Positions 1,713 through 53,222 of a DNA stretch of 64,000 nt are shown one piece after another. Origin of the DNA: Maribacter stanieri (GTDB lineage: Bacteria; Bacteroidota; Bacteroidia; Flavobacteriales; Flavobacteriaceae); contig NZ_FOYX01000003.1 of NCBI RefSeq assembly GCF_900112245.1, forward strand, positions 310,001 to 374,000, given 5' to 3'. The translations under genes and the position numbers were made by a program. The notes beneath the pieces are model-generated. The model was not told the origin of the DNA and ran no database searches. It saw only the letters and a list, made by a program, of their open reading frames with translations. Position 1 is the first letter of the stretch, and the number at the start of each line of letters is the position of its first letter.

Positions 1713-3908
1713 ATGACGATTTCTATTTGGCGCTATAGTCATCTTACACTTGCCTTAGTTTCTTCGCTATTTTTGATAGTTGCTTCTGTTACCGGTATCA
1801 TTTTAGCGGTAGAACCAATTTCGCACCAAGCTAAGGGCTATGCCGTAGAAAATCTAGAAGAAGTCTCCTTGGCAACGACCATAGATGCCCTAAAGAATTC
1901 TTATGATGAGGTGTTAGGGCTGGAAGTAGAATCATCTGGGTTCGTTAAAGCTTCTGTACTAACTATGGACATGGAGACCTTAGATGTGTATGTAAATCCT
2001 GCAACGGGCGAGCAATTGGGCGAGGTAGAAGAACGACCTTATATTTATACATTCGCCACCAACTTACACCGATCTCTTTTTCTTAAAAGTATAGGCAGGT
2101 TCTTCGTGGGTCTAATTTCATTACTCTTATTCATTATAGCCGTTACAGGCTTAATTTTGTTAGCGAAAAGACAAGGCGGATTTCTAAAGCTTTTTTCAAA
2201 AGTTAAGAAAGATTACTTTGAAATGCGATACCATGTCGTTTTAAGTAAATGGTTCTTTATTCCTATTTTAATTCTGGCACTCACCGGAGTCTATTTATCT
2301 GCGGAGAAATTCAACTTGTTGCCCAATACGGTTGTAGCGCAACAACAATTTGCTATCAATGATAATGCTGAGGTTTATGAAACCATTGGTGATATTCCTT
2401 TTTTTAAGGAAACAATCTTAGCTGAAATTCGTCAGGTAGAATTTCCGTTTTCCGATGACCCAGAGGAATATTATCTCATTGCTTTACAGGATAAGGAAGT
2501 TCAGGTAAATCAGCAAACAGGTGAAATTGTTAGTAGTGGTGACTATCCCTTTGTGACTTTAGCTTCGAGATTAAGTTTAGTGCTACATACTGGTGAGGGC
2601 AGTGTACTTTGGTCTATCATTCTATTGCTTGCTAGTGCATCCATATTATTTTTTATGTATTCCGGTTTTGTAATGACCCTAAGGCGTAGAAAGAAAGGAA
2701 AGCGAATTGCTACAATGCCAAATAAGGATGAATGTGAGTTTGTTATATTGGTAGGGTCGGAGAGTGGTACTGCGTTTGACTTTGGGCAACGATTGTATAA
2801 CGGATTGACAAAAGTTGGAAAGAACGTTTATTTGACGGAACTTAATACATACACCACGTACGCTAAGGCGACGAATATTATCGTATTTACTTCTACTTAC
2901 GGTGAAGGAGAACCACCAACGAATGCCCGTAAATTTCCAGCAATATTTTCCACTATTAAACAACCGAATACGATTGATTTTTCAGTAATCGGTTTTGGCT
3001 CTTTGGATTATCCAGATTACTGCAAGTTTGCAATTGATATTGATAAGCAAATTGCCGATGCTTTAGATTTTAATAGACAATTGCCCTTATTTAAAATTAA
3101 TAAAGCAAATTTTGAATCTTTTGAACTTTGGATGATTCAATTTGGTAATCAAGTAGGATTTACTATTCCAATAGAGCGTCCTGTAGTTAATAAAAAGAAA
3201 TATAAGAAAGTAGATTTTGAAGTTTTAGAACGAACAGAGCTAAATATTGATGATACTTTTTTGCTGAGGTTACAACCAAAAACTAATATTGAATTTACAT
3301 CTGGAGATTTGTTGGCTGTATTCCCAAATGGAGATGAAACGGTTAGGCAGTATTCAATTGCTAGAATTGAAGACGATATTCTATTGAGTATTAAAAAACA
3401 TGAATTAGGAAGAGGTTCTAATTTTCTCTTCGGATTAAATGTTGGTGAAACTATTAGAGCTGCTATTGATAGTAATGAACATTTTCATTTACCCAAAAAT
3501 GAAAAAAATGTAATTCTCATCTCAAATGGTACTGGTATAGCTCCGTTTTTAGGAATGATTTCAAAAAATACAACTCAAAATATATCCTTGTTCTGGGGAG
3601 GGCGTAAAAAAGCCTCTATGGATGTTTATAATTCTATTTTAGAAAAAAACTCATTAAATCATAAAAACATCAAGATATTTTCAACGTTCTCTAGAGAAGG
3701 CGAAAAGCAATATGTTCAAGATGTTATTAAAGAGCAAAAAGATTTGGTGCTACAAACAATTAACACTGGTGGTACCATTATGATTTGTGGTTCGTTGGCA
3801 ATGCAGCATGATGTTCTTGATGTATTCGAAAACATGCTCCAAGACAATAAACTCATAACTTTTGAGGCTTTCGAAAAAAGCGACCAGCTGAAAACAGATT
3901 GTTATTAG
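1713..3908 (+). CDS. PepSY membrane domain-flavodoxin-ferredoxin reductase fusion
   Basis: A 731-residue electron-transfer protein. Four membrane helices are visible (about residues 8-32, 128-150, 179-198, 296-322) in a PepSY-associated arrangement with periplasmic loops between them, followed by a cytoplasmic flavodoxin domain (VGSESGTAFDFG near 345, TSTYGEGEPP near 395) and a ferredoxin-NADP reductase/CYPOR-type domain (FAD motif RQYSIA near 545, GTGIAPFLG near 605, MICGSLAMQ near 690). Such proteins take electrons from NADPH through FAD and FMN across the inner membrane; related proteins reduce ferric siderophores or other periplasmic substrates. It is often annotated as sulfite reductase flavoprotein alpha subunit, which is probably a misnomer because no sulfite reductase gene is near. 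Upstream DUF2271 supports a metal-related role; no TonB receptor lies in view. Confidence 0.88.
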   Translation: MTISIWRYSHLTLALVSSLFLIVASVTGIILAVEPISHQAKGYAVENLEEVSLATTIDALKNSYDEVLGLEVESSGFVKASVLTMDMETLDVYVNPATGEQLGEVEERPYIYTFATNLHRSLFLKSIGRFFVGLISLLLFIIAVTGLILLAKRQGGFLKLFSKVKKDYFEMRYHVVLSKWFFIPILILALTGVYLSAEKFNLLPNTVVAQQQFAINDNAEVYETIGDIPFFKETILAEIRQVEFPFSDDPEEYYLIALQDKEVQVNQQTGEIVSSGDYPFVTLASRLSLVLHTGEGSVLWSIILLLASASILFFMYSGFVMTLRRRKKGKRIATMPNKDECEFVILVGSESGTAFDFGQRLYNGLTKVGKNVYLTELNTYTTYAKATNIIVFTSTYGEGEPPTNARKFPAIFSTIKQPNTIDFSVIGFGSLDYPDYCKFAIDIDKQIADALDFNRQLPLFKINKANFESFELWMIQFGNQVGFTIPIERPVVNKKKYKKVDFEVLERTELNIDDTFLLRLQPKTNIEFTSGDLLAVFPNGDETVRQYSIARIEDDILLSIKKHELGRGSNFLFGLNVGETIRAAIDSNEHFHLPKNEKNVILISNGTGIAPFLGMISKNTTQNISLFWGGRKKASMDVYNSILEKNSLNHKNIKIFSTFSREGEKQYVQDVIKEQKDLVLQTINTGGTIMICGSLAMQHDVLDVFENMLQDNKLITFEAFEKSDQLKTDCY

Positions 3909-9255: not shown

Positions 9256-10707
9256 TTAAGCTTTTCTTCTAGTTATTAAATCTTGTTCTATTTGAGTTTC
9301 CATTTTTTTATTTATTTCATAAAGAAATAACAATGCTATTGCTATGAAAAATGAAATTGCAGGATATATGCTTACCAGCATTTTTGTTCCCTGTATGGCG
9401 CTTTCTGGTTGTATGATCGCATCTGTAGCTGCAAATTTCTTAGGTATATAGTCATAGATTCCTAATATCCAAGTAACTAAAGAGCTACCAATGGTTAAGC
9501 CCAATTTAAGACCTATCATCATTGCAGAAAATATAATTGCCGTTGCCCGTCTATTATTTTTCCATTCAGAGTAATCTGCTACATCTGCAATCATTGCCCA
9601 TAGTAATGGGATGGTGATACCGTAAAAGAACCCGTGTAAAATTTGAGATAAGAACATTAGCTCTACAGAGGTTGGCGCAAAAAAGTAAAAAATTGCAATG
9701 AAAATAGTAGAGACAAATAGCGCTGCACCAAAAACATCTCGTTTACCATATTTATCCGCCAAGCCTTTGGATAAGGATATACCAACGATCATAAATATTA
9801 TACCACCGGCATTGAACAGACCAAAACCTGCAGAAATTGGGTTGTCACCAAAGAAATCTACTCCTATACTGTTAAGTCCATTTAAAATAGGACCTATAAA
9901 TTCTGCCAAACTTGTAGCATCTACATAGTTTTCAAAATAGTAAACATAAGAACCACCTTTCATCGCTAAAGTGATGAATACCAAAGTGGTTAATACCAAC
10001 ATTATAATCCAAGGCTTGTTCTTTACCAAATCACCTAAATCTTCTTTGAAGCTTGATTTTTGATCTATGGTGGGTATGACTCTCTCTTTGGTTGTAAAAA
10101 AGGTGATTAACAGCATTATCGTTCCTATAATTGCCAAATAGGTCATTACAATTTCAATACCTACCGCTTTGTCTCCGTCTCCTGCATATTGAATGATAGG
10201 CAACATGAATACTTGTACAAAGAATTGAGCGAACATTACCGCAACAAAACGGTATGATGAAATACTATTACGCTCTTTCATACTGCCTGTAATTACACCA
10301 CTTAAAGCAGCATACGGTAAGTTGTTGGCAGCATATAATAATAAGAGTAGGGTATAGGTTACCGCAGCATAGACTACTTTACCAGAATAGTCAAAATTGG
10401 GAGTGCTGAAAGCTAATAGAGCGACAACACCTAATGGAATGGATGTAAACAAGATCCAAGGTCTAAATTTACCCCACTTACTTCTGGTTCTGTCTGCCAA
10501 GGCACCTACAATAGGGTTAAAGGCAAATGCAGCGACCATACCGACAACAAATATTATTAACGAGGCGTCGTTGGTTTCTAGACCGTAAATATCGGTATAG
10601 AAATAAGCTAGGTAGGTAACTAAGGTCTGGAAGACCAAATTGGCGGATAAGTCTCCTAAAGAATACCCTATTTTCTCCTTAAGAGATATTTTATGATCGT
10701 TGTTCAT
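9256..10707 (-). CDS. GPH-family sugar:cation symporter (xylo-oligoside importer)
   Basis: A 483-residue major-facilitator-type membrane protein of the glycoside-pentoside-hexuronide family: it opens with EKIGYSLGDLSANLVFQ and has the loop ADRTRSKWGKFRPWIL after the second helix, both diagnostic of MelB/XynP-like symporters; twelve membrane helices can be counted by eye. It should carry xylose-containing oligosaccharides across the inner membrane with a cation. It lies 23 bases after the GH10 gene and 2 bases before GH43, within one operon. There is no signal of truncation. Confidence 0.92.
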   Translation of the reverse strand: MNNDHKISLKEKIGYSLGDLSANLVFQTLVTYLAYFYTDIYGLETNDASLIIFVVGMVAAFAFNPIVGALADRTRSKWGKFRPWILFTSIPLGVVALLAFSTPNFDYSGKVVYAAVTYTLLLLLYAANNLPYAALSGVITGSMKERNSISSYRFVAVMFAQFFVQVFMLPIIQYAGDGDKAVGIEIVMTYLAIIGTIMLLITFFTTKERVIPTIDQKSSFKEDLGDLVKNKPWIIMLVLTTLVFITLAMKGGSYVYYFENYVDATSLAEFIGPILNGLNSIGVDFFGDNPISAGFGLFNAGGIIFMIVGISLSKGLADKYGKRDVFGAALFVSTIFIAIFYFFAPTSVELMFLSQILHGFFYGITIPLLWAMIADVADYSEWKNNRRATAIIFSAMMIGLKLGLTIGSSLVTWILGIYDYIPKKFAATDAIIQPESAIQGTKMLVSIYPAISFFIAIALLFLYEINKKMETQIEQDLITRRKA

Positions 10708-48208: not shown

Positions 48209-49744
48209 ATGCTTACAAAAGTTTACGGGAGTGCAGTATTTGGCGTTGAGGCTACTACTATTATAGTAGAAGTAAATATTGATAAGGGAATTGGCTATCA
48301 TCTAGTTGGGCTTCCCGATAACGCAATTAAAGAAAGTAATTATAGAATAGCGGCTGCACTTCAAAATAATGGTTATAAAATTCCTGGGAAGAAAATAACT
48401 ATTAACATGGCACCAGCAGATTTACGTAAAGAGGGTTCTGCTTATGATCTCACACTAGCTATTGGAATTTTAGCGGCATCAAACCAAATTAAATCTGAAA
48501 ATATAGAGAAGTATATCATCATGGGCGAGTTATCGTTAGATGGTAGCCTTCAACCTATAAAAGGTGCACTTCCCATAGCTATAAAAGCACAAGAGGAAGG
48601 ATTTGAAGGTTTTATTTTGCCAACAGCCAATGCAAAGGAAGCTGCAATAGTTGGAGATTTAAAAGTATATGGGATAGATAATATTAAGCAGGTTTTAGAT
48701 TTCTTTGATCAAGATATTCCGTTAGAGCAGACTATTATAGATACAAGAGAAGAATTTTATAAAAGTTTAGATTTTCCTGAATTTGATTTCTCTGATGTAA
48801 AAGGTCAGGAAAGTATAAAACGTTGCATGGAAATTGCTGCGGCGGGCGGTCATAATATAATATTAATAGGTCCGCCAGGCGCAGGTAAGACTATGTTGGC
48901 AAAAAGATTACCTTCCATATTACCTCCAATGACTTTGCATGAAGCTTTGGAAACGACTAAAATTCACAGTGTTGTTGGTAAGGTAAAGAATATGGGATTA
49001 ATGAGTCAAAGACCATTTAGAAGCCCACATCATACAATTTCGGATGTGGCCTTGGTCGGAGGAGGTGCATATCCACAACCCGGGGAAATTTCACTTTCTC
49101 ATAACGGAGTATTGTTCTTAGACGAGTTGCCAGAATTTAAACGGGGTGTTTTAGAGGTAATGCGACAGCCCTTAGAGGATAGGGAGGTAACTATTTCTCG
49201 TGCACGTTTTACGGTTACTTATCCAAGTAGTTTTATGTTGGTGGCGAGTATGAACCCTAGTCCGGGTGGTTATTTTAATGACCCTGATGCTCCGGTAACT
49301 TCATCACCAGCAGAAATGCAACGATATTTAAGTAAAATATCTGGTCCGCTTTTAGATCGTATCGATATTCATATAGAGGTAACTCCGGTTCCATTTGAAA
49401 AACTATCCGAAGAACGAAAAGGAGAAGGGAGTGTTGAAATTAGAAAACGAGTTACAGCAGGGAGAGAAATACAAACAGCTAGGTTTGAAGGATTGGAAAA
49501 TGTGCATTACAATGCTCAAATGAACACAAAGCAAATTCGTGCATATTGTAAATTAGACGATAAGTCTAAAGCGTTATTGAAAAATGCGATGGAGCGATTA
49601 AATTTATCGGCTCGTGCATATGATAGAATCTTGAAAGTAGCTAGAACTATCGCTGATTTAGCCGGTGAGCAGGAATTGATTGGAGATCATATTTCAGAAG
49701 CCATTCAATACCGCTCGTTAGACAGAGAGGGTTGGTTGGGGTAA
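48209..49744 (+). CDS. comM: YifB/ComM family Mg-chelatase-like AAA+ ATPase
   Basis: A 511-residue hexameric helicase-like ATPase; ComM aids branch migration of incoming DNA during natural transformation. Full length, with the N-terminal ChlI/Lon-like domain (about 1-165), AAA core with Walker A GPPGAGKTMLAKR (near 222), Walker B LFLDELPEF (near 310), sensor region MNPSPGGYF, and C-terminal helical domain ending REGWLG. The 3' half (from about 49017) recurs 1.6 kb downstream as a fragment. It starts 2 bases after the penicillin-acylase stop. Confidence 0.95.
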   Translation: MLTKVYGSAVFGVEATTIIVEVNIDKGIGYHLVGLPDNAIKESNYRIAAALQNNGYKIPGKKITINMAPADLRKEGSAYDLTLAIGILAASNQIKSENIEKYIIMGELSLDGSLQPIKGALPIAIKAQEEGFEGFILPTANAKEAAIVGDLKVYGIDNIKQVLDFFDQDIPLEQTIIDTREEFYKSLDFPEFDFSDVKGQESIKRCMEIAAAGGHNIILIGPPGAGKTMLAKRLPSILPPMTLHEALETTKIHSVVGKVKNMGLMSQRPFRSPHHTISDVALVGGGAYPQPGEISLSHNGVLFLDELPEFKRGVLEVMRQPLEDREVTISRARFTVTYPSSFMLVASMNPSPGGYFNDPDAPVTSSPAEMQRYLSKISGPLLDRIDIHIEVTPVPFEKLSEERKGEGSVEIRKRVTAGREIQTARFEGLENVHYNAQMNTKQIRAYCKLDDKSKALLKNAMERLNLSARAYDRILKVARTIADLAGEQELIGDHISEAIQYRSLDREGWLG

Positions 49745-49805
49745 AAATTTTAACAATTAATTTGACCTTGAGTTTCAATCTGGCGACAGCTTAGTGTATG
49801 TAATT

Positions 49806-49858
49806 AACTTATTTTCGGATACTAGTTTTTGGCGGATTTTTCTAAAGAATTTTATCAT
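49806..49858 (-). pseudogene. Truncated N-terminus of a second DUF6090 gene
   Basis: On the minus strand the ATG at 49858 is 3 bases after the stop of the complete DUF6090 gene and in the same frame. The first 18 codons read MIKFFRKIRQKLVSENKL, matching MINFFRKIRQKLLTENKF of the intact neighbour, and then the match stops (ITYTKLSPD and a TGA follow). It is the start of a tandem paralogue cut off at about 49804, 60 bases from the comM stop. Not likely to make a product. Confidence 0.75.
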
Positions 49859-49861
49859 TTT

Positions 49862-50578
49862 TCAATTAAGTTCTTTATCAATCATTTCTATTAATTTTTG
49901 TATTTCTTTTTTAGTGGTATTTTTAAAAGTTTTCTGAATAGTGTTCTCTCTTCGAGTTGTCATTAACATTTCATGAAATTCATTATTTTCCAATAGGGAT
50001 TGATAATCGATAGGTGTTGCGTTATTTAGCAAAATGAAATTTTGAAAGTGTTTTTTGTAAAATATTTTAAATTCAATCATGTTATTATAGGCAAGTTCAT
50101 TTCTCTGGAACTTAGTAAGTTCGTAATTGAAGGAATATAGCTTTTGGTAGTTTTCGCGTAGGGTATCATTCGAAATAATATCAAAACCGATGGTCTTTAA
50201 ATTTTCATAAGCTGTAGTGTTGGTCATGTGTATAGTATATGCTGGTATCCATCCAAAATGGTAGTCTAAGCTGTCCTTATAGGGTTTTCGCTGTTCTAAA
50301 TAATCCAAGACAATATTTGTAGAATTCATTGCATTTTCAAGCACGAGATTTGGATACTTTTCTTGAAGAATGTCAGCCTCCAAATTGCGTTTCATTTGAA
50401 GTAATAAATCTCTTTCTTGTGATATTCTTTTATTTCCCTCATTCCAGTTGTTGATGGACAATGCAATCAGAATTCCGATAACTACCAATACAATCTCGCC
50501 AATTGAGTAGAATAGGTATTTACTAAACTTATTTTCAGTGAGCAGTTTTTGACGTATTTTTCTGAAGAAGTTAATCAT
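49862..50578 (-). CDS. DUF6090-type membrane protein
   Basis: A protein of about 238 residues with a conserved Bacteroidota-type head: short basic helix (INFFRKIRQKLL), then one membrane helix YLFYSIGEIVLVVIGILIAL and the sequence SINNWNE, followed by a mostly helical soluble domain. This head is what I recall as DUF6090, a family with no known function that commonly occurs as tandem copies. I start at the ATG at 50578 (MINFFRKIRQ); the extra seven codons in the longer frame are not conserved. It lies between the two copies of the comM 3' half and points against them; a truncated sister follows it. Confidence 0.8.
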   Translation of the reverse strand: MINFFRKIRQKLLTENKFSKYLFYSIGEIVLVVIGILIALSINNWNEGNKRISQERDLLLQMKRNLEADILQEKYPNLVLENAMNSTNIVLDYLEQRKPYKDSLDYHFGWIPAYTIHMTNTTAYENLKTIGFDIISNDTLRENYQKLYSFNYELTKFQRNELAYNNMIEFKIFYKKHFQNFILLNNATPIDYQSLLENNEFHEMLMTTRRENTIQKTFKNTTKKEIQKLIEMIDKELN

Positions 50579-50652
50579 GTGAAGTGGTTGGTTGTTCATC
50601 CTAAGATAGAGAATTATTCTAAGAGGCTTAAAATCAGTCTAATAATATGTAA

Positions 50653-51386
50653 TTAGAAGACCACCACATTAGATAGTTTCACAGATGTGGCCCTGGTCGG
50701 AGGAGGTGCATATCCACAACCCGGGGAAATTTCACTTTCTCATAACGGAGTATTGTTCTTAGACGAGCTGCCAGAATTTAAACGGGGTGTTTTAGAGGTA
50801 ATGCGACAGCCCTTAGAGGATAGGGAAGTAACTATTTCTCGTGCACGTTTTACGGTTACTTACCCAAGTAGCTTTATGTTGGTGGCGAGTATGAACCCTA
50901 GTCCGGGTGGTTATTTTAACGACCCTGATGCTCCGGTAACTTCATCACCAGCAGAAATGCAACGATATTTAAGTAAAATATCTGGCCCGCTTTTAGATCG
51001 TATCGATATTCATATTGAGGTAACTCCGGTTCCATTTGAAAAACTATCCGAAGAACGAAAAGGAGAAGGGAGTGTTGAAACTAGAAAACGTGTTACAGCA
51101 GGAAGAGAAATACAAACAGCTAGGTTTGAAGGATTGGGAAATGTGCATTACAATGCTCAAATGAACACAAAGCAAATTCGTGCATATTGTAAATTAGACG
51201 ATAAGTCTAAAGCGTTATTGAAAAATGCGATGGAGCGATTAAATTTATCGGCTCGTGCATATGATAGAATCTTGAAAGTAGCTAGAACTATCGCTGATTT
51301 AGCCGGTGAGCAGGAATTGAATGGAGATCATATTTCAGAAGCCATTCAATTCCTGCTCACTGGATAGAGAGGGTTGGTTGGGGTAA
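50653..51386 (+). pseudogene. 5'-truncated duplicate of the comM/yifB 3' half
   Basis: From TTAGAAG at 50653 to the TAA at 51384-51386 this copies 49017-49744 of comM. From 50683 on the match is nearly exact: by eye about 14 single-base differences in 660, mostly synonymous; protein changes are I to T, E to G and I to N near the end. The first 30 bases are scrambled by small indels, and near the end a one-base insertion shifts the frame so the open frame stops at 51367 (AIQFLLTG). It begins after the Walker A motif but keeps Walker B (LFLDELPEF), so it cannot make a working ATPase. There is no start signal of its own. Confidence 0.9.
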
Positions 51387-51430: not shown

Positions 51431-52858
51431 CTAGTTGAATTTTTTAATCAGTTGATAACTAAATTCTATAATTTCCTTATAATTTTCTTTATTAATTTTT
51501 TCATCAATACCGTGAAAACGTGATAATGAATTAGGATCTAATCGAATTGGATAAAATCGATATACATCGTCTGAGATTTCATAAAAATAGCGACCATCAG
51601 TGCCTCCACCTACAAGACCAGGAACAACTACAGACTCTGGGAAAACAGAACGTATTGTTTTTTCGAGTGTTTTATAAGCATTGGAATCAATGCTCGATAC
51701 AGGCGATGGATTCGTCAAAAAACCTACCTTTTCAACTCTTATTTTATTACTAATAGTATTTTCAATGTGTTCTTTAACAGATTCAATATTTTCGCCTGGT
51801 AAAATTCTGAAATTGATAGTGGCTTCGGCAACCGTTGGTATAACATTATTTTTAATGCCACCATCTATAATCGTTGCGGCAGTAGTAGTATGTGCATTCA
51901 ATGCTTCAAGAATTGGTTTTTTGAATAACCAAGGATTTGCGAAAGCAACTTTTTTCATAAAAGGTAATTCTGCGCCCATATATCCTAATTGATAATTGAT
52001 AGGCTCAACCAATTTATAAGGTAACTGATTGTTTTCTAGATCTACAATTGCCTTGGCCAGCATACCTATGGTATTTTCTTTTGGAGGTGCCGAGCTGTGC
52101 CCACCATTGGTTTCAACAATAAGTCTAAAAGAAGCAAATCCTTTTTCTGCTAAATTTACTATAGCTACAGTGTTATCAATACCTGGTACTAGACCATCTG
52201 CTAAAAAACCGCCTTCATCTATGGTCATAGATGCATCAACTCCTCGCTCTTTTAACAAAGCTGCAATTTTAGCAGCCCCTTTAGAACCGCCTACTTCTTC
52301 ATCATGACCAAAAGCTAAGTAGATAGTTTGGCTAGGAGTAAATGATTCTTTTAATAAAAGCTCAACAGCTTCCATGAGTGCCATTAAGGAACTTTTATCA
52401 TCTAGTGTTCCTCTACCTATAATATCTGTAGCTGTTATTTTTCCTTCAAAAGGTCCTGCTTCCCAGTCATTCAAGGTGGGTTCATCTACAGGTACCACAT
52501 CTTGATGAGACATAAGAATAATTGGTTTTTTATTTTGATCAGTCCCTTTCCAGGTATATAATAAACTGTATTCATTTACTTTTTCTAATGTCAGTTGCTC
52601 ATGAATTAATGGATATGTGTCTTGAAGGAATTGATGAAAACCATAAAAAGCAGTAGAATCAGGTATGGCATTTTCACTAAAAGAGATAGTGGGGTATTGA
52701 ATGGCTTTTGATAAATTTTTGTAAACATCGTCAGAGATCACTAATTTTTCTAACGGGTCGGACTCAACTTGTTTTGAAGTTAGTGATAGCGTATTGAATA
52801 AAAGTATACAAAGAACAAGAACGACAACAGCTAAAAGGCTGTAGAGTATTTTTTTCAT
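51431..52858 (-). CDS. M20-family metallopeptidase (carboxypeptidase CPS1-like)
   Basis: A 475-residue di-zinc peptidase. The start at 52858 gives a membrane anchor or signal (MKKILYSLLAVVVLVLCILL); the longer frame adds 14 residues from a TTG. Zinc ligands are visible as His in ILMSHQDVVPVDEP, Asp in GRGTLDDKSSLM and Glu in GHDEEVGGSKGA (catalytic EE pair), with GGTDGRYF near the C-terminus; the lid domain is at about 240-355. It probably trims peptides or N-acyl amino acids in the periplasm. It converges on the comM fragment with 44 bases between. Confidence 0.92.
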   Translation of the reverse strand: MKKILYSLLAVVVLVLCILLFNTLSLTSKQVESDPLEKLVISDDVYKNLSKAIQYPTISFSENAIPDSTAFYGFHQFLQDTYPLIHEQLTLEKVNEYSLLYTWKGTDQNKKPIILMSHQDVVPVDEPTLNDWEAGPFEGKITATDIIGRGTLDDKSSLMALMEAVELLLKESFTPSQTIYLAFGHDEEVGGSKGAAKIAALLKERGVDASMTIDEGGFLADGLVPGIDNTVAIVNLAEKGFASFRLIVETNGGHSSAPPKENTIGMLAKAIVDLENNQLPYKLVEPINYQLGYMGAELPFMKKVAFANPWLFKKPILEALNAHTTTAATIIDGGIKNNVIPTVAEATINFRILPGENIESVKEHIENTISNKIRVEKVGFLTNPSPVSSIDSNAYKTLEKTIRSVFPESVVVPGLVGGGTDGRYFYEISDDVYRFYPIRLDPNSLSRFHGIDEKINKENYKEIIEFSYQLIKKFN

Positions 52859-53222
52859 AATGGTTTGTTGGTTGATGGTCTGTAATAAGCTGAATTCCAA
52901 TACAATTTAGCTAAAAATACCAAGCAATTTATTGCCTATTGCGTTTATTATAAATTTCAAAATTTTATTGATGAATAAATAATGAATTCTAAAATTCTGT
53001 GATTAATTTTTATAAAATTGCTCTAATAATCATACCATTCAAATATGTGATCAACATAATTATAAGGTTCAATTTCGTTTCCTAAACATAGTAAAACTGA
53101 AGGATGGTAGTAAAGATATGGCTAGCTAAGTGCTAATGGCATATCAGTCACATTCTTATCCCATACATTCGCATTTAGCTTAAAGTTTACTTACATTTTT
53201 ACTCTGGTAATAGCCGATATTT
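52859..53222. other. 364-base gap with no recognised feature
   Basis: The gap between the M20 peptidase start and the aminotransferase stop is AT-rich, without an open frame of note, hairpin-plus-T-run or exact promoter box on either strand. A weak TATTTTTA on the minus strand (52919-52912) could be a -7 box for the peptidase. Confidence 0.4.

What the first reader, a model, noticed from the sequence alone, without database searches (positions are those of the whole stretch)
49017..51386. Half of comM/yifB is repeated across a DUF6090 gene, as if left by a single-crossover integration
Seen: a full comM (48209-49744), then a minus-strand DUF6090 gene, then a fragment covering comM from about codon 270 to the stop, all within 2.4 kb. 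The order intact gene, inserted DNA, 5'-truncated copy, native downstream flank is what results when a circular molecule that carries only the 3' part of a gene recombines once with the chromosome. comM acts in natural transformation and is a known landing site for genomic islands in other bacteria, so its use here is suggestive. Alternative: tandem duplication followed by deletions.
Basis: partly seen in the sequence, partly recalled or inferred. Interest (0 to 1): 0.7.

Follow-up and report, generated by a model that had tools for sequence, protein, structure and literature searches.

The report
Integration scar beside intact comM
A marine bacterium (Maribacter) carries, beside its intact DNA-uptake gene comM, a dead second copy of that gene's back half that begins exactly where mobile islands cut comM in related bacteria; similar scars in relatives, sometimes several in a row, suggest that mobile DNA has entered this gene again and again while the gene survived.

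Summary
comM codons 279-511 (49043-49744) recur at 50684-51386, 97.3% identical, across a minus-strand DUF6090 gene. The second copy begins at one precise point, GATGT at codon 279, preceded by AGACCACCACATTAGATAGTTTCACA. Nine relatives have comM split at this same point by islands with a large serine recombinase (LSR); a profile of eight of their right-hand half-sites ranks the window junction first of 127,948 window 26-mers. So this is an LSR-type attR scar, not a random breakpoint. The two 3' halves differ mainly by synonymous changes, and in 18 of 19 copy pairs tested (15 loci) no homology is seen after the stop codon. In situ duplication does not explain this; an incoming unit carrying its own comM 3' half does. 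Such tails lie downstream of intact comM in 17 of 107 loci (one more doubtful), always same strand, some loci with several. DUF6090 is recurrent cargo beside the half-site, and once splits another gene. Most likely: comM-sparing, gene-end-replacing insertions at an LSR site. How they enter (LSR in trans, homologous recombination, or repair of a split gene) is unsettled. LSRs targeting this gene are known; comM-sparing, repeated scars look like a new variant.

The parts
48209..49744 (+). intact comM/yifB-type gene (ChlI, Mg_chelatase, Mg_chelatase_C)
49043..49047 (+). GATGT core at codon 279: the target site (attB), present again inside intact comM
49043..49744 (+). 3' half of intact comM (codons 279-511 and stop), proposed (inferred) to have come with the inserted unit
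49796..49858 (-). DUF6090 5'-end fragment just after the comM stop; by eye a similar comM-spacer-fragment block is seen in G019, G013 (after its first tail) and G012
49862..50599 (-). DUF6090 gene, 245 aa, cargo; model all-helical; the hydrophobic N-terminal helix reads as a membrane helix (my reading)
50658..50683 (+). P half-site AGACCACCACATTAGATAGTTTCACA of an LSR-type attachment site
50684..50688 (+). GATGT core of the attR scar
50684..51386 (+). displaced comM 3' tail (codons 279-511), pseudogene
51300..51366 (+). inverted repeat (51300-51324 / 51342-51366, 92%) in the tail, possibly a template-switch mutation
51431..52900 (-). M20 peptidase, right flank; directly follows the single comM in G016

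Best explanation
The second copy is the attR end of a site-specific integration into comM. Large serine recombinases use the GATGT at codon 279 as target and leave P half-site|GATGT-comM 3' half at the right end of what they insert. The unit that entered here was of a comM-sparing kind: it carried DUF6090, a P half-site and its own comM 3' half from codon 279 to the stop. Joined to the native 5' half it kept comM whole, pushed the resident 3' half to the right as a dead tail, and gave back the target site, so that further units can enter. Shown: the site, the tail, the divergence pattern, where homology ends, and loci with several tails in relatives. Inferred: the unit as one circular molecule, and the last step (LSR supplied in trans, or homologous recombination within the 3' half). 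No LSR was found in the genome now.
For: Nine loci have comM split at this codon with an LSR inside the split: G002, G003, G097, G107, G121, G147, G212, G350 and G360; the three LSRs given to Pfam have the Resolvase, Recombinase and Zn_ribbon domains. A profile of the 26-nt half-sites of the first eight, window not included, gives the window junction 19.6 bits, first of 127,948; left out one at a time, seven of the eight sites reach the top 0.04% of window 26-mers, G003 only the top 1.7%. Similar junctions follow intact comM in G186, G246, L119, L149, L131, L128 and G161. Intact 3' half against tail: window 10 of 13 differences synonymous (neutral 29%, p=4e-4; tail branch alone 5 of 7, p=0.02); G186 about 96 synonymous and 9.5 nonsynonymous at 85% identity; over 14 comparisons dN/dS is at most 0.18 in 12, and 0.30 and 0.39 in the other two. 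In 18 of 19 pairs the 200-nt flanks after the two stop codons are unrelated. Tails: 17 of 107 loci plus one doubtful, all same strand, none on the other. DUF6090, spacer and half-site align between the window, L119, L131 and G076 and the pairing recurs six times at 77-85 nt in G360. In G416 a DUF6090 unit of about 1 kb splits a phoD-like gene that is unbroken in 5 of 5 relatives read.
Against: No LSR gene was found in the window genome (PF07508) or, with two island LSRs as queries, downstream of intact comM in the Maribacter loci, so the agent is not seen. A site P|comM-3'half is not a normal LSR attP; pairing of attR with attB by an LSR is not established to my knowledge. The tail's nearest sequence is its own genome's comM in all 9 tails of 8 genomes compared, which suits exchange among close kin better than a widely moving element. 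Discordance between 5' and 3' halves of intact comM across species is slight. In G360 a deeper tail is better kept than the one at the island's end, against strict layer order. Half-site scores of the G295 (two), G014 and G012 scars are weak, -17.9 to 1.4 bits. At 12 bits and above, half-site matches near comM show no strand or side bias (15 and 10 downstream, 7 and 16 upstream on + and -); only above 19 bits are they downstream + alone. The left end of the unit in the window is not clean.
Confidence: 0.55

Rival explanations
1. Two-step: an LSR island or mini-element split comM at codon 279, and comM was later repaired by homologous recombination with DNA of a close relative (natural transformation likely). 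The right crossover fell inside the insert, possibly in DUF6090, so the old tail and part of the insert stayed behind.
For: Full islands that split comM are the only forms found with a recombinase. Tail and intact 3' half are nearest relatives. In G295 the stretch after intact comM opens with a truncated small resolvase (residues 98-195 of 197) like those of LSR islands. comEC- and dprA-type genes are present, though 10 and 11 of 14 control genomes, E. coli among them, have them too. DUF6090 5' ends are alike enough at DNA level to serve as homology. The window's two copies have different neighbours, a DUF6090-fragment block and M20.
Against: Ordinary repair would cross over in the tail and remove everything. 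Cargo is 0.9-2.4 kb in 10 of 16 stretches between a comM stop and the next tail (0.1, 0.7, 3.2, 3.3, 3.5 and 4.7 kb in the others; 39 kb in G252), against 10-33 kb in the islands. Homology ends at the stop codon in 18 of 19 pairs, although repair DNA should bring native flank. No strain-level data.
Confidence: 0.3
2. Homologous single-crossover (Campbell) integration of a circle carrying the comM 3' part and DUF6090, with no role for a site-specific recombinase in this event.
For: Gives the observed order; the 700-nt 3' half is ample homology; the copies are 97.3% identical.
Against: Does not by itself explain why the truncated copy begins exactly at the LSR core with a P half-site, as in other genera. 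It could still describe how an already formed cassette spreads.
Confidence: 0.1
3. In situ tandem duplication of comM followed by deletions, or an assembly error.
For: Two nearly identical copies lie within 2.4 kb. No reads could be examined.
Against: Mostly synonymous differences, unrelated flanks after the stop codons, the exact LSR junction, and the same architecture in other assemblies (L119, L131; G008). The copies differ at 19 positions and sit inside a 734-kb contig.
Confidence: 0.03

Closest known systems
LSR-directed integrative elements that target the magnesium chelatase/comM gene (PMC10083194, passages read; sr1WO prophages of Wolbachia, PMC9203015, passages read)
   Same: Same target gene family and recombinase class; [quoted passage not shown]
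   Different: Those are described as disrupting or flanked by parts of the target. Here comM is whole, no recombinase is present, and a displaced 3' tail remains. The passages read do not mention tails or repeated scars
comM-inserting islands in Acinetobacter and others (AbaR, PMC7508600; PMC11472951; PMC4774983; passages read)
   Same: comM as island target; disruption lowers transformation; [quoted passage not shown])
   Different: Tn7-like or other integrases; no gene-end replacement or tail scars in the passages read
Gene-end-replacing integrative elements (tRNA genes, icd; recalled, no call)
   Same: Element restores the target gene's 3' end and leaves a displaced fragment at the far end
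   Different: Those I recall use tyrosine recombinases and carry the integrase; here the site is LSR-type and no recombinase is carried
Integron cassette arrays (recalled, no call)
   Same: Repeated entry at one regenerated site
   Different: No integron integrase seen in the insert; each unit would carry part of the target gene; strict order is not upheld in G360

Membership tests
LSR integrative element (as attR scar) | right junction = P half-site + core + target 3' part | tested here: met
   19.6 bits, first of 127,948 26-mers
LSR integrative element (as attR scar) | large serine recombinase gene in the element | tested here: not met
   only DUF6090 in the insert; no PF07508 match in the genome
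LSR integrative element (as attR scar) | attL (target 5' part | P' arm) at the left end | tested here: not met
   comM runs on intact through codon 279
LSR integrative element (as attR scar) | same site occupied by LSR islands in some relatives and empty in others | tested here: met
Gene-end-replacing integrative element | target gene whole, displaced 3' fragment at far end, direct repeats flanking | tested here: met
Gene-end-replacing integrative element | element carries its integrase | tested here: not met
   the 942 nt from the comM stop to the junction hold only DUF6090 and a fragment
Gene-end-replacing integrative element | excises as a circle | not testable with these tools
   needs reads or PCR
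AbaR/Tn7-like comM island | transposition genes and short target duplication | tested here: not met
   no ORF but DUF6090 in the insert; the repeat is about 700 nt
Integron | IntI-type integrase and attC sites | not tested
   not searched for; the insert's only ORF of 50 aa or more kept is DUF6090

The most novel reading that the evidence does not exclude
comM codon 279 works in Flavobacteriaceae like an integron's entry site run by large serine recombinases. Small cassettes [comM 3' half - cargo, often DUF6090 - P half-site] enter, rebuild both comM and the target site, and pile up in arrays of up to about ten half-sites (G360). Cargo thus accumulates at a competence gene without the break in comM that full LSR islands cause.
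Probability: 0.3. Interest if true: 0.85.

Novelty: new variant of a known kind. Interest (0 to 1): 0.62.

Why it matters
Mobile elements that break comM are discussed as a defence against their removal by transformation (PMC4774983, PMC11472951, passages read), and whether broken comM is regained is open: PMC11472951 raised it and found no excess over chance. The tails here are marks of insertion events after which comM is intact, so recovery versus sparing can be counted across genomes and tested. If cassettes bring their own 3' half, one site would host two opposed strategies, breaking comM and sparing it. DUF6090, listed in Pfam as of unknown function, gains a context as recurrent cargo.

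Tried and rejected
Tandem duplication: rejected on synonymous pattern and unrelated flanks. Foreign origin of the intact 3' half in the window: not found; both copies are nearest to G015 at about 89%, so which copy is native stays open. Mosaic test of 5' against 3' halves over 84 distinct comM genes of exactly 511 codons: correlations across codon 279 (0.53-0.64) are about those within halves (0.65, 0.66), a few congeneric pairs disagree; inconclusive. Genus mates of G186 to polarise its two copies: only one genome is held. DUF6090 as a right-end gene of full LSR islands: no profile hit among ORFs of 80 aa or more in the eight islands scanned (that scan also missed a fragment in G076 that tblastn saw). 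DUF6090 as a defence protein: no PADLOC match. Structure of DUF6090: all-helical, mean pLDDT 77.7; no fold search made. A clean left end of the DUF6090 unit: an AGTAGTGGTGGTC-like end stands 133-134 nt from DUF6090 in G416 and G014 and a similar one in L119, none at this place in the window. P half-site as merely the DUF6090 promoter: not excluded as a second role, but LSR islands without DUF6090 have it. Literature: no paper in the library holds DUF6090. The listings of searches, most of them capped at 10-20 of up to 391 papers, show no title on comM tails; only passages of PMC10083194, PMC9203015, PMC4774983, PMC11472951 and PMC7508600 were read. A further search failed on its terms and was not repeated. 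Absence in print is therefore weakly tested.

Limits of the counts. The census left out L110-L113 as the same records as G035, G022, G034 and G005 (equal contig lengths); L122 (24% identity) is counted as doubtful; G007, G021 and G035 share one tail and are not independent; some loci have little DNA downstream (871-2126 nt in G008, G014, G034, L119), and most G loci only about 200 nt upstream, so the upstream control rests mainly on the named loci. G014's tail lies on another contig and is not among the 17. The family search lists only its best matches; I re-searched 54 of its 299 genomes, chosen by match number and E-value, so the 10 split genomes are a lower bound; DNA was read for 7 of the 10. 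Of the 19 flank pairs seven come from three loci (L128, L131, L135), and old pairs have little power; the weight rests on young pairs such as the window, G246, G252 and L159. Tails of G008, G013, G019, G179 and G201 were not in that test.
Full report
What is there. comM (48209-49744) is intact. Its codons 279-511 recur at 50684-51386, 97.3% identical (19 differences over 703 aligned positions), with a minus-strand DUF6090 gene (49862-50599) and a DUF6090 5' fragment (49796-49858) between. The second copy lacks the start and ends early, beside a small inverted repeat.

Relatives. The search of 60 genomes (the window's own and 59 relatives, 35 of the same genus) finds one comM match only in 27 of those 35, more than one in 6 and none in 2 incomplete ones. 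The genus is taken to be Maribacter, because contigs of G022 and G035 have the lengths of records named Maribacter. Downstream of comM, G016 has M20 directly, 11 genomes have the 187-aa gene within about 225 nt, and others hold a variable zone. In G002 and G003 comM is split: codons up to 279 and from 279 on lie 12-16 kb apart, with an LSR gene next to the 5' half. In the family, 10 of the 54 genomes re-searched (of 299) have comM in two parts near codon 280. Seven of these were read: six carry an LSR at the same codon, and G076 a distant one near codon 293. G360 is a further case at codon 279, which makes nine. Three LSRs were given to Pfam and have the three LSR domains. G003 carries type II and G002 type III restriction-modification genes; the others were not tested except one G212 protein without a match.

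The junction. At the right end of these islands stands a half-site near ACCNCCACATTATANNNATAACA, then the core (GATGT, in some GACGT or AACGT) and the comM 3' half. A profile of eight such half-sites, none from the window, scores the window junction at 19.6 bits, the best of 127,948 window 26-mers on both strands; the unbroken comM at the same place scores 2.8. Left out one at a time, seven of the eight score in the top 0.04% and G003 in the top 1.7%. Of the other scars, G186 (two), G246, L149 and L128 score 16.7-25.1 bits; L119, G076 and L131 4.2-9.9; G014, G295 (two) and G012 1.4 or less. G252, G305 and L159 have a different junction, shared by the three, and score about -20. In the scan around intact comM, matches of 19 bits or more occur only downstream on the plus strand (window, L128, L149); from 12 bits up there is no such bias. 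A mirrored arm is recognisable at the left end of four of eight islands.

How the two 3' halves relate. In the window 10 of 13 differences in the first 655 nt are synonymous, where neutral change would give 29% (p=4e-4); on the tail branch alone 5 of 7 (p=0.02). In G186 the halves are 85% identical with about 96 synonymous and 9.5 nonsynonymous changes; over all 14 comparisons dN/dS is 0.01-0.18 in 12 and 0.30 and 0.39 in two. So the copies diverged mostly as working genes. In 18 of 19 pairs the flanks after the two stop codons are unrelated, G305 being the exception. Both facts speak for an incoming unit that carried the 3' half up to the stop. The tail's nearest sequence among those compared is nevertheless its own genome's comM, for 9 tails of 8 genomes, so donors are close kin.

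Repeated events. In 107 loci with intact comM (30 Maribacter, G036, 76 named) 18 have a comM tail downstream on the same strand, one of them doubtful and three of them one shared tail; none has one on the opposite strand; upstream, where less DNA was at hand, there is one weak hit. More than one tail is seen in G013, G019, L128, L131 and L135 and in G186, G252 and G295. G360 has a current LSR island and, to its right between 49.8 and 72.8 kb of the stretch, ten half-sites of 14.5-32.8 bits, all on the plus strand, seven of them followed by GATGT, and 14 DUF6090 genes (13 minus, one plus), six of which start 77-85 nt from a half-site. The whole 93 kb has 15 matches of 12 bits or more (14 plus; the one on the minus strand is at the comM break) where shuffling gives 0.6; that profile was trained on 12 sites, the window's among them but none from G360. 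A deeper tail there is better kept than the one at the island's end, against simple layer order.

DUF6090. It lies beside the half-site in the window, L119, L131 and G076, with alignable spacers; counted from the conserved start MINFF (residue 8) the window spacing is also about 80 nt. Within 10 kb of comM in 80 named loci it occurs downstream in 4 and upstream in 0 (72 loci have the full 10 kb upstream). In G416 a DUF6090 gene with spacer and half-site, about 1 kb, splits a phoD-like gene (named from its sequence by me). Of 10 genomes of that genus, G416 included, 8 have a match to that gene, and it is unbroken in the 5 relatives read. So the unit is found away from comM, in one case.

Reading. 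That the second copy is an LSR-type attR scar I hold at about 0.93. That the unit brought its own comM 3' half, so sparing comM, I hold at 0.55; repair of a split comM by recombination is the main rival at 0.30. The genome has comEC- and dprA-type genes, which most control genomes have too, so transformation is possible but not shown. Riemerella species of this family are reported naturally competent, Flavobacterium johnsoniae not under the same conditions (PMC8383284, PMC7965970; starts of abstracts in a search listing).

Known and new. LSRs that target this gene are known and common (PMC10083194, passages; PMC9203015, passages), and comM-breaking islands and their cost to transformation are known (PMC7508600, PMC11472951, PMC4774983, passages). 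I saw nothing on comM-sparing tail scars or arrays in the capped listings, a limited check.

Noticed in passing
L090-L092 (G252:C2:396000-442000): Intact comM and a 98% identical comM tail lie about 39 kb apart; the ORFs between look to me, by eye, like a polysaccharide-utilisation locus. The junction is of a second type (ACAAATGG|CA.CACACCA) shared with G305 and L159.
   Followed up: partly
L216 (G416:C48), about 9500-10520: A DUF6090 unit of about 1 kb with an LSR-type half-site splits a phoD-like phosphatase gene that is whole in relatives.
   Followed up: partly
G360:C3 (L215, L220-L224): Array of 14 DUF6090 genes and ten half-sites to the right of a comM-splitting LSR island.
   Followed up: partly
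L098 (G179:C37) 3014-3297: A 5' fragment of comM (codons 1-95) lies about 4 kb upstream of intact comM, the reverse of the usual tail.
   Followed up: no
L051 (G027:C13): Only the first 28 or 29 codons of comM were found in this 99% complete Maribacter genome.
   Followed up: no
window 51300-51366: Inverted repeat inside the comM tail that looks like a template-switch mutation.
   Followed up: no
L050 (G048:C18): In another family of the order comM is in two parts (codons 2-128 and 282-509) 15 kb apart, without a match to the two LSRs used as queries.
   Followed up: no
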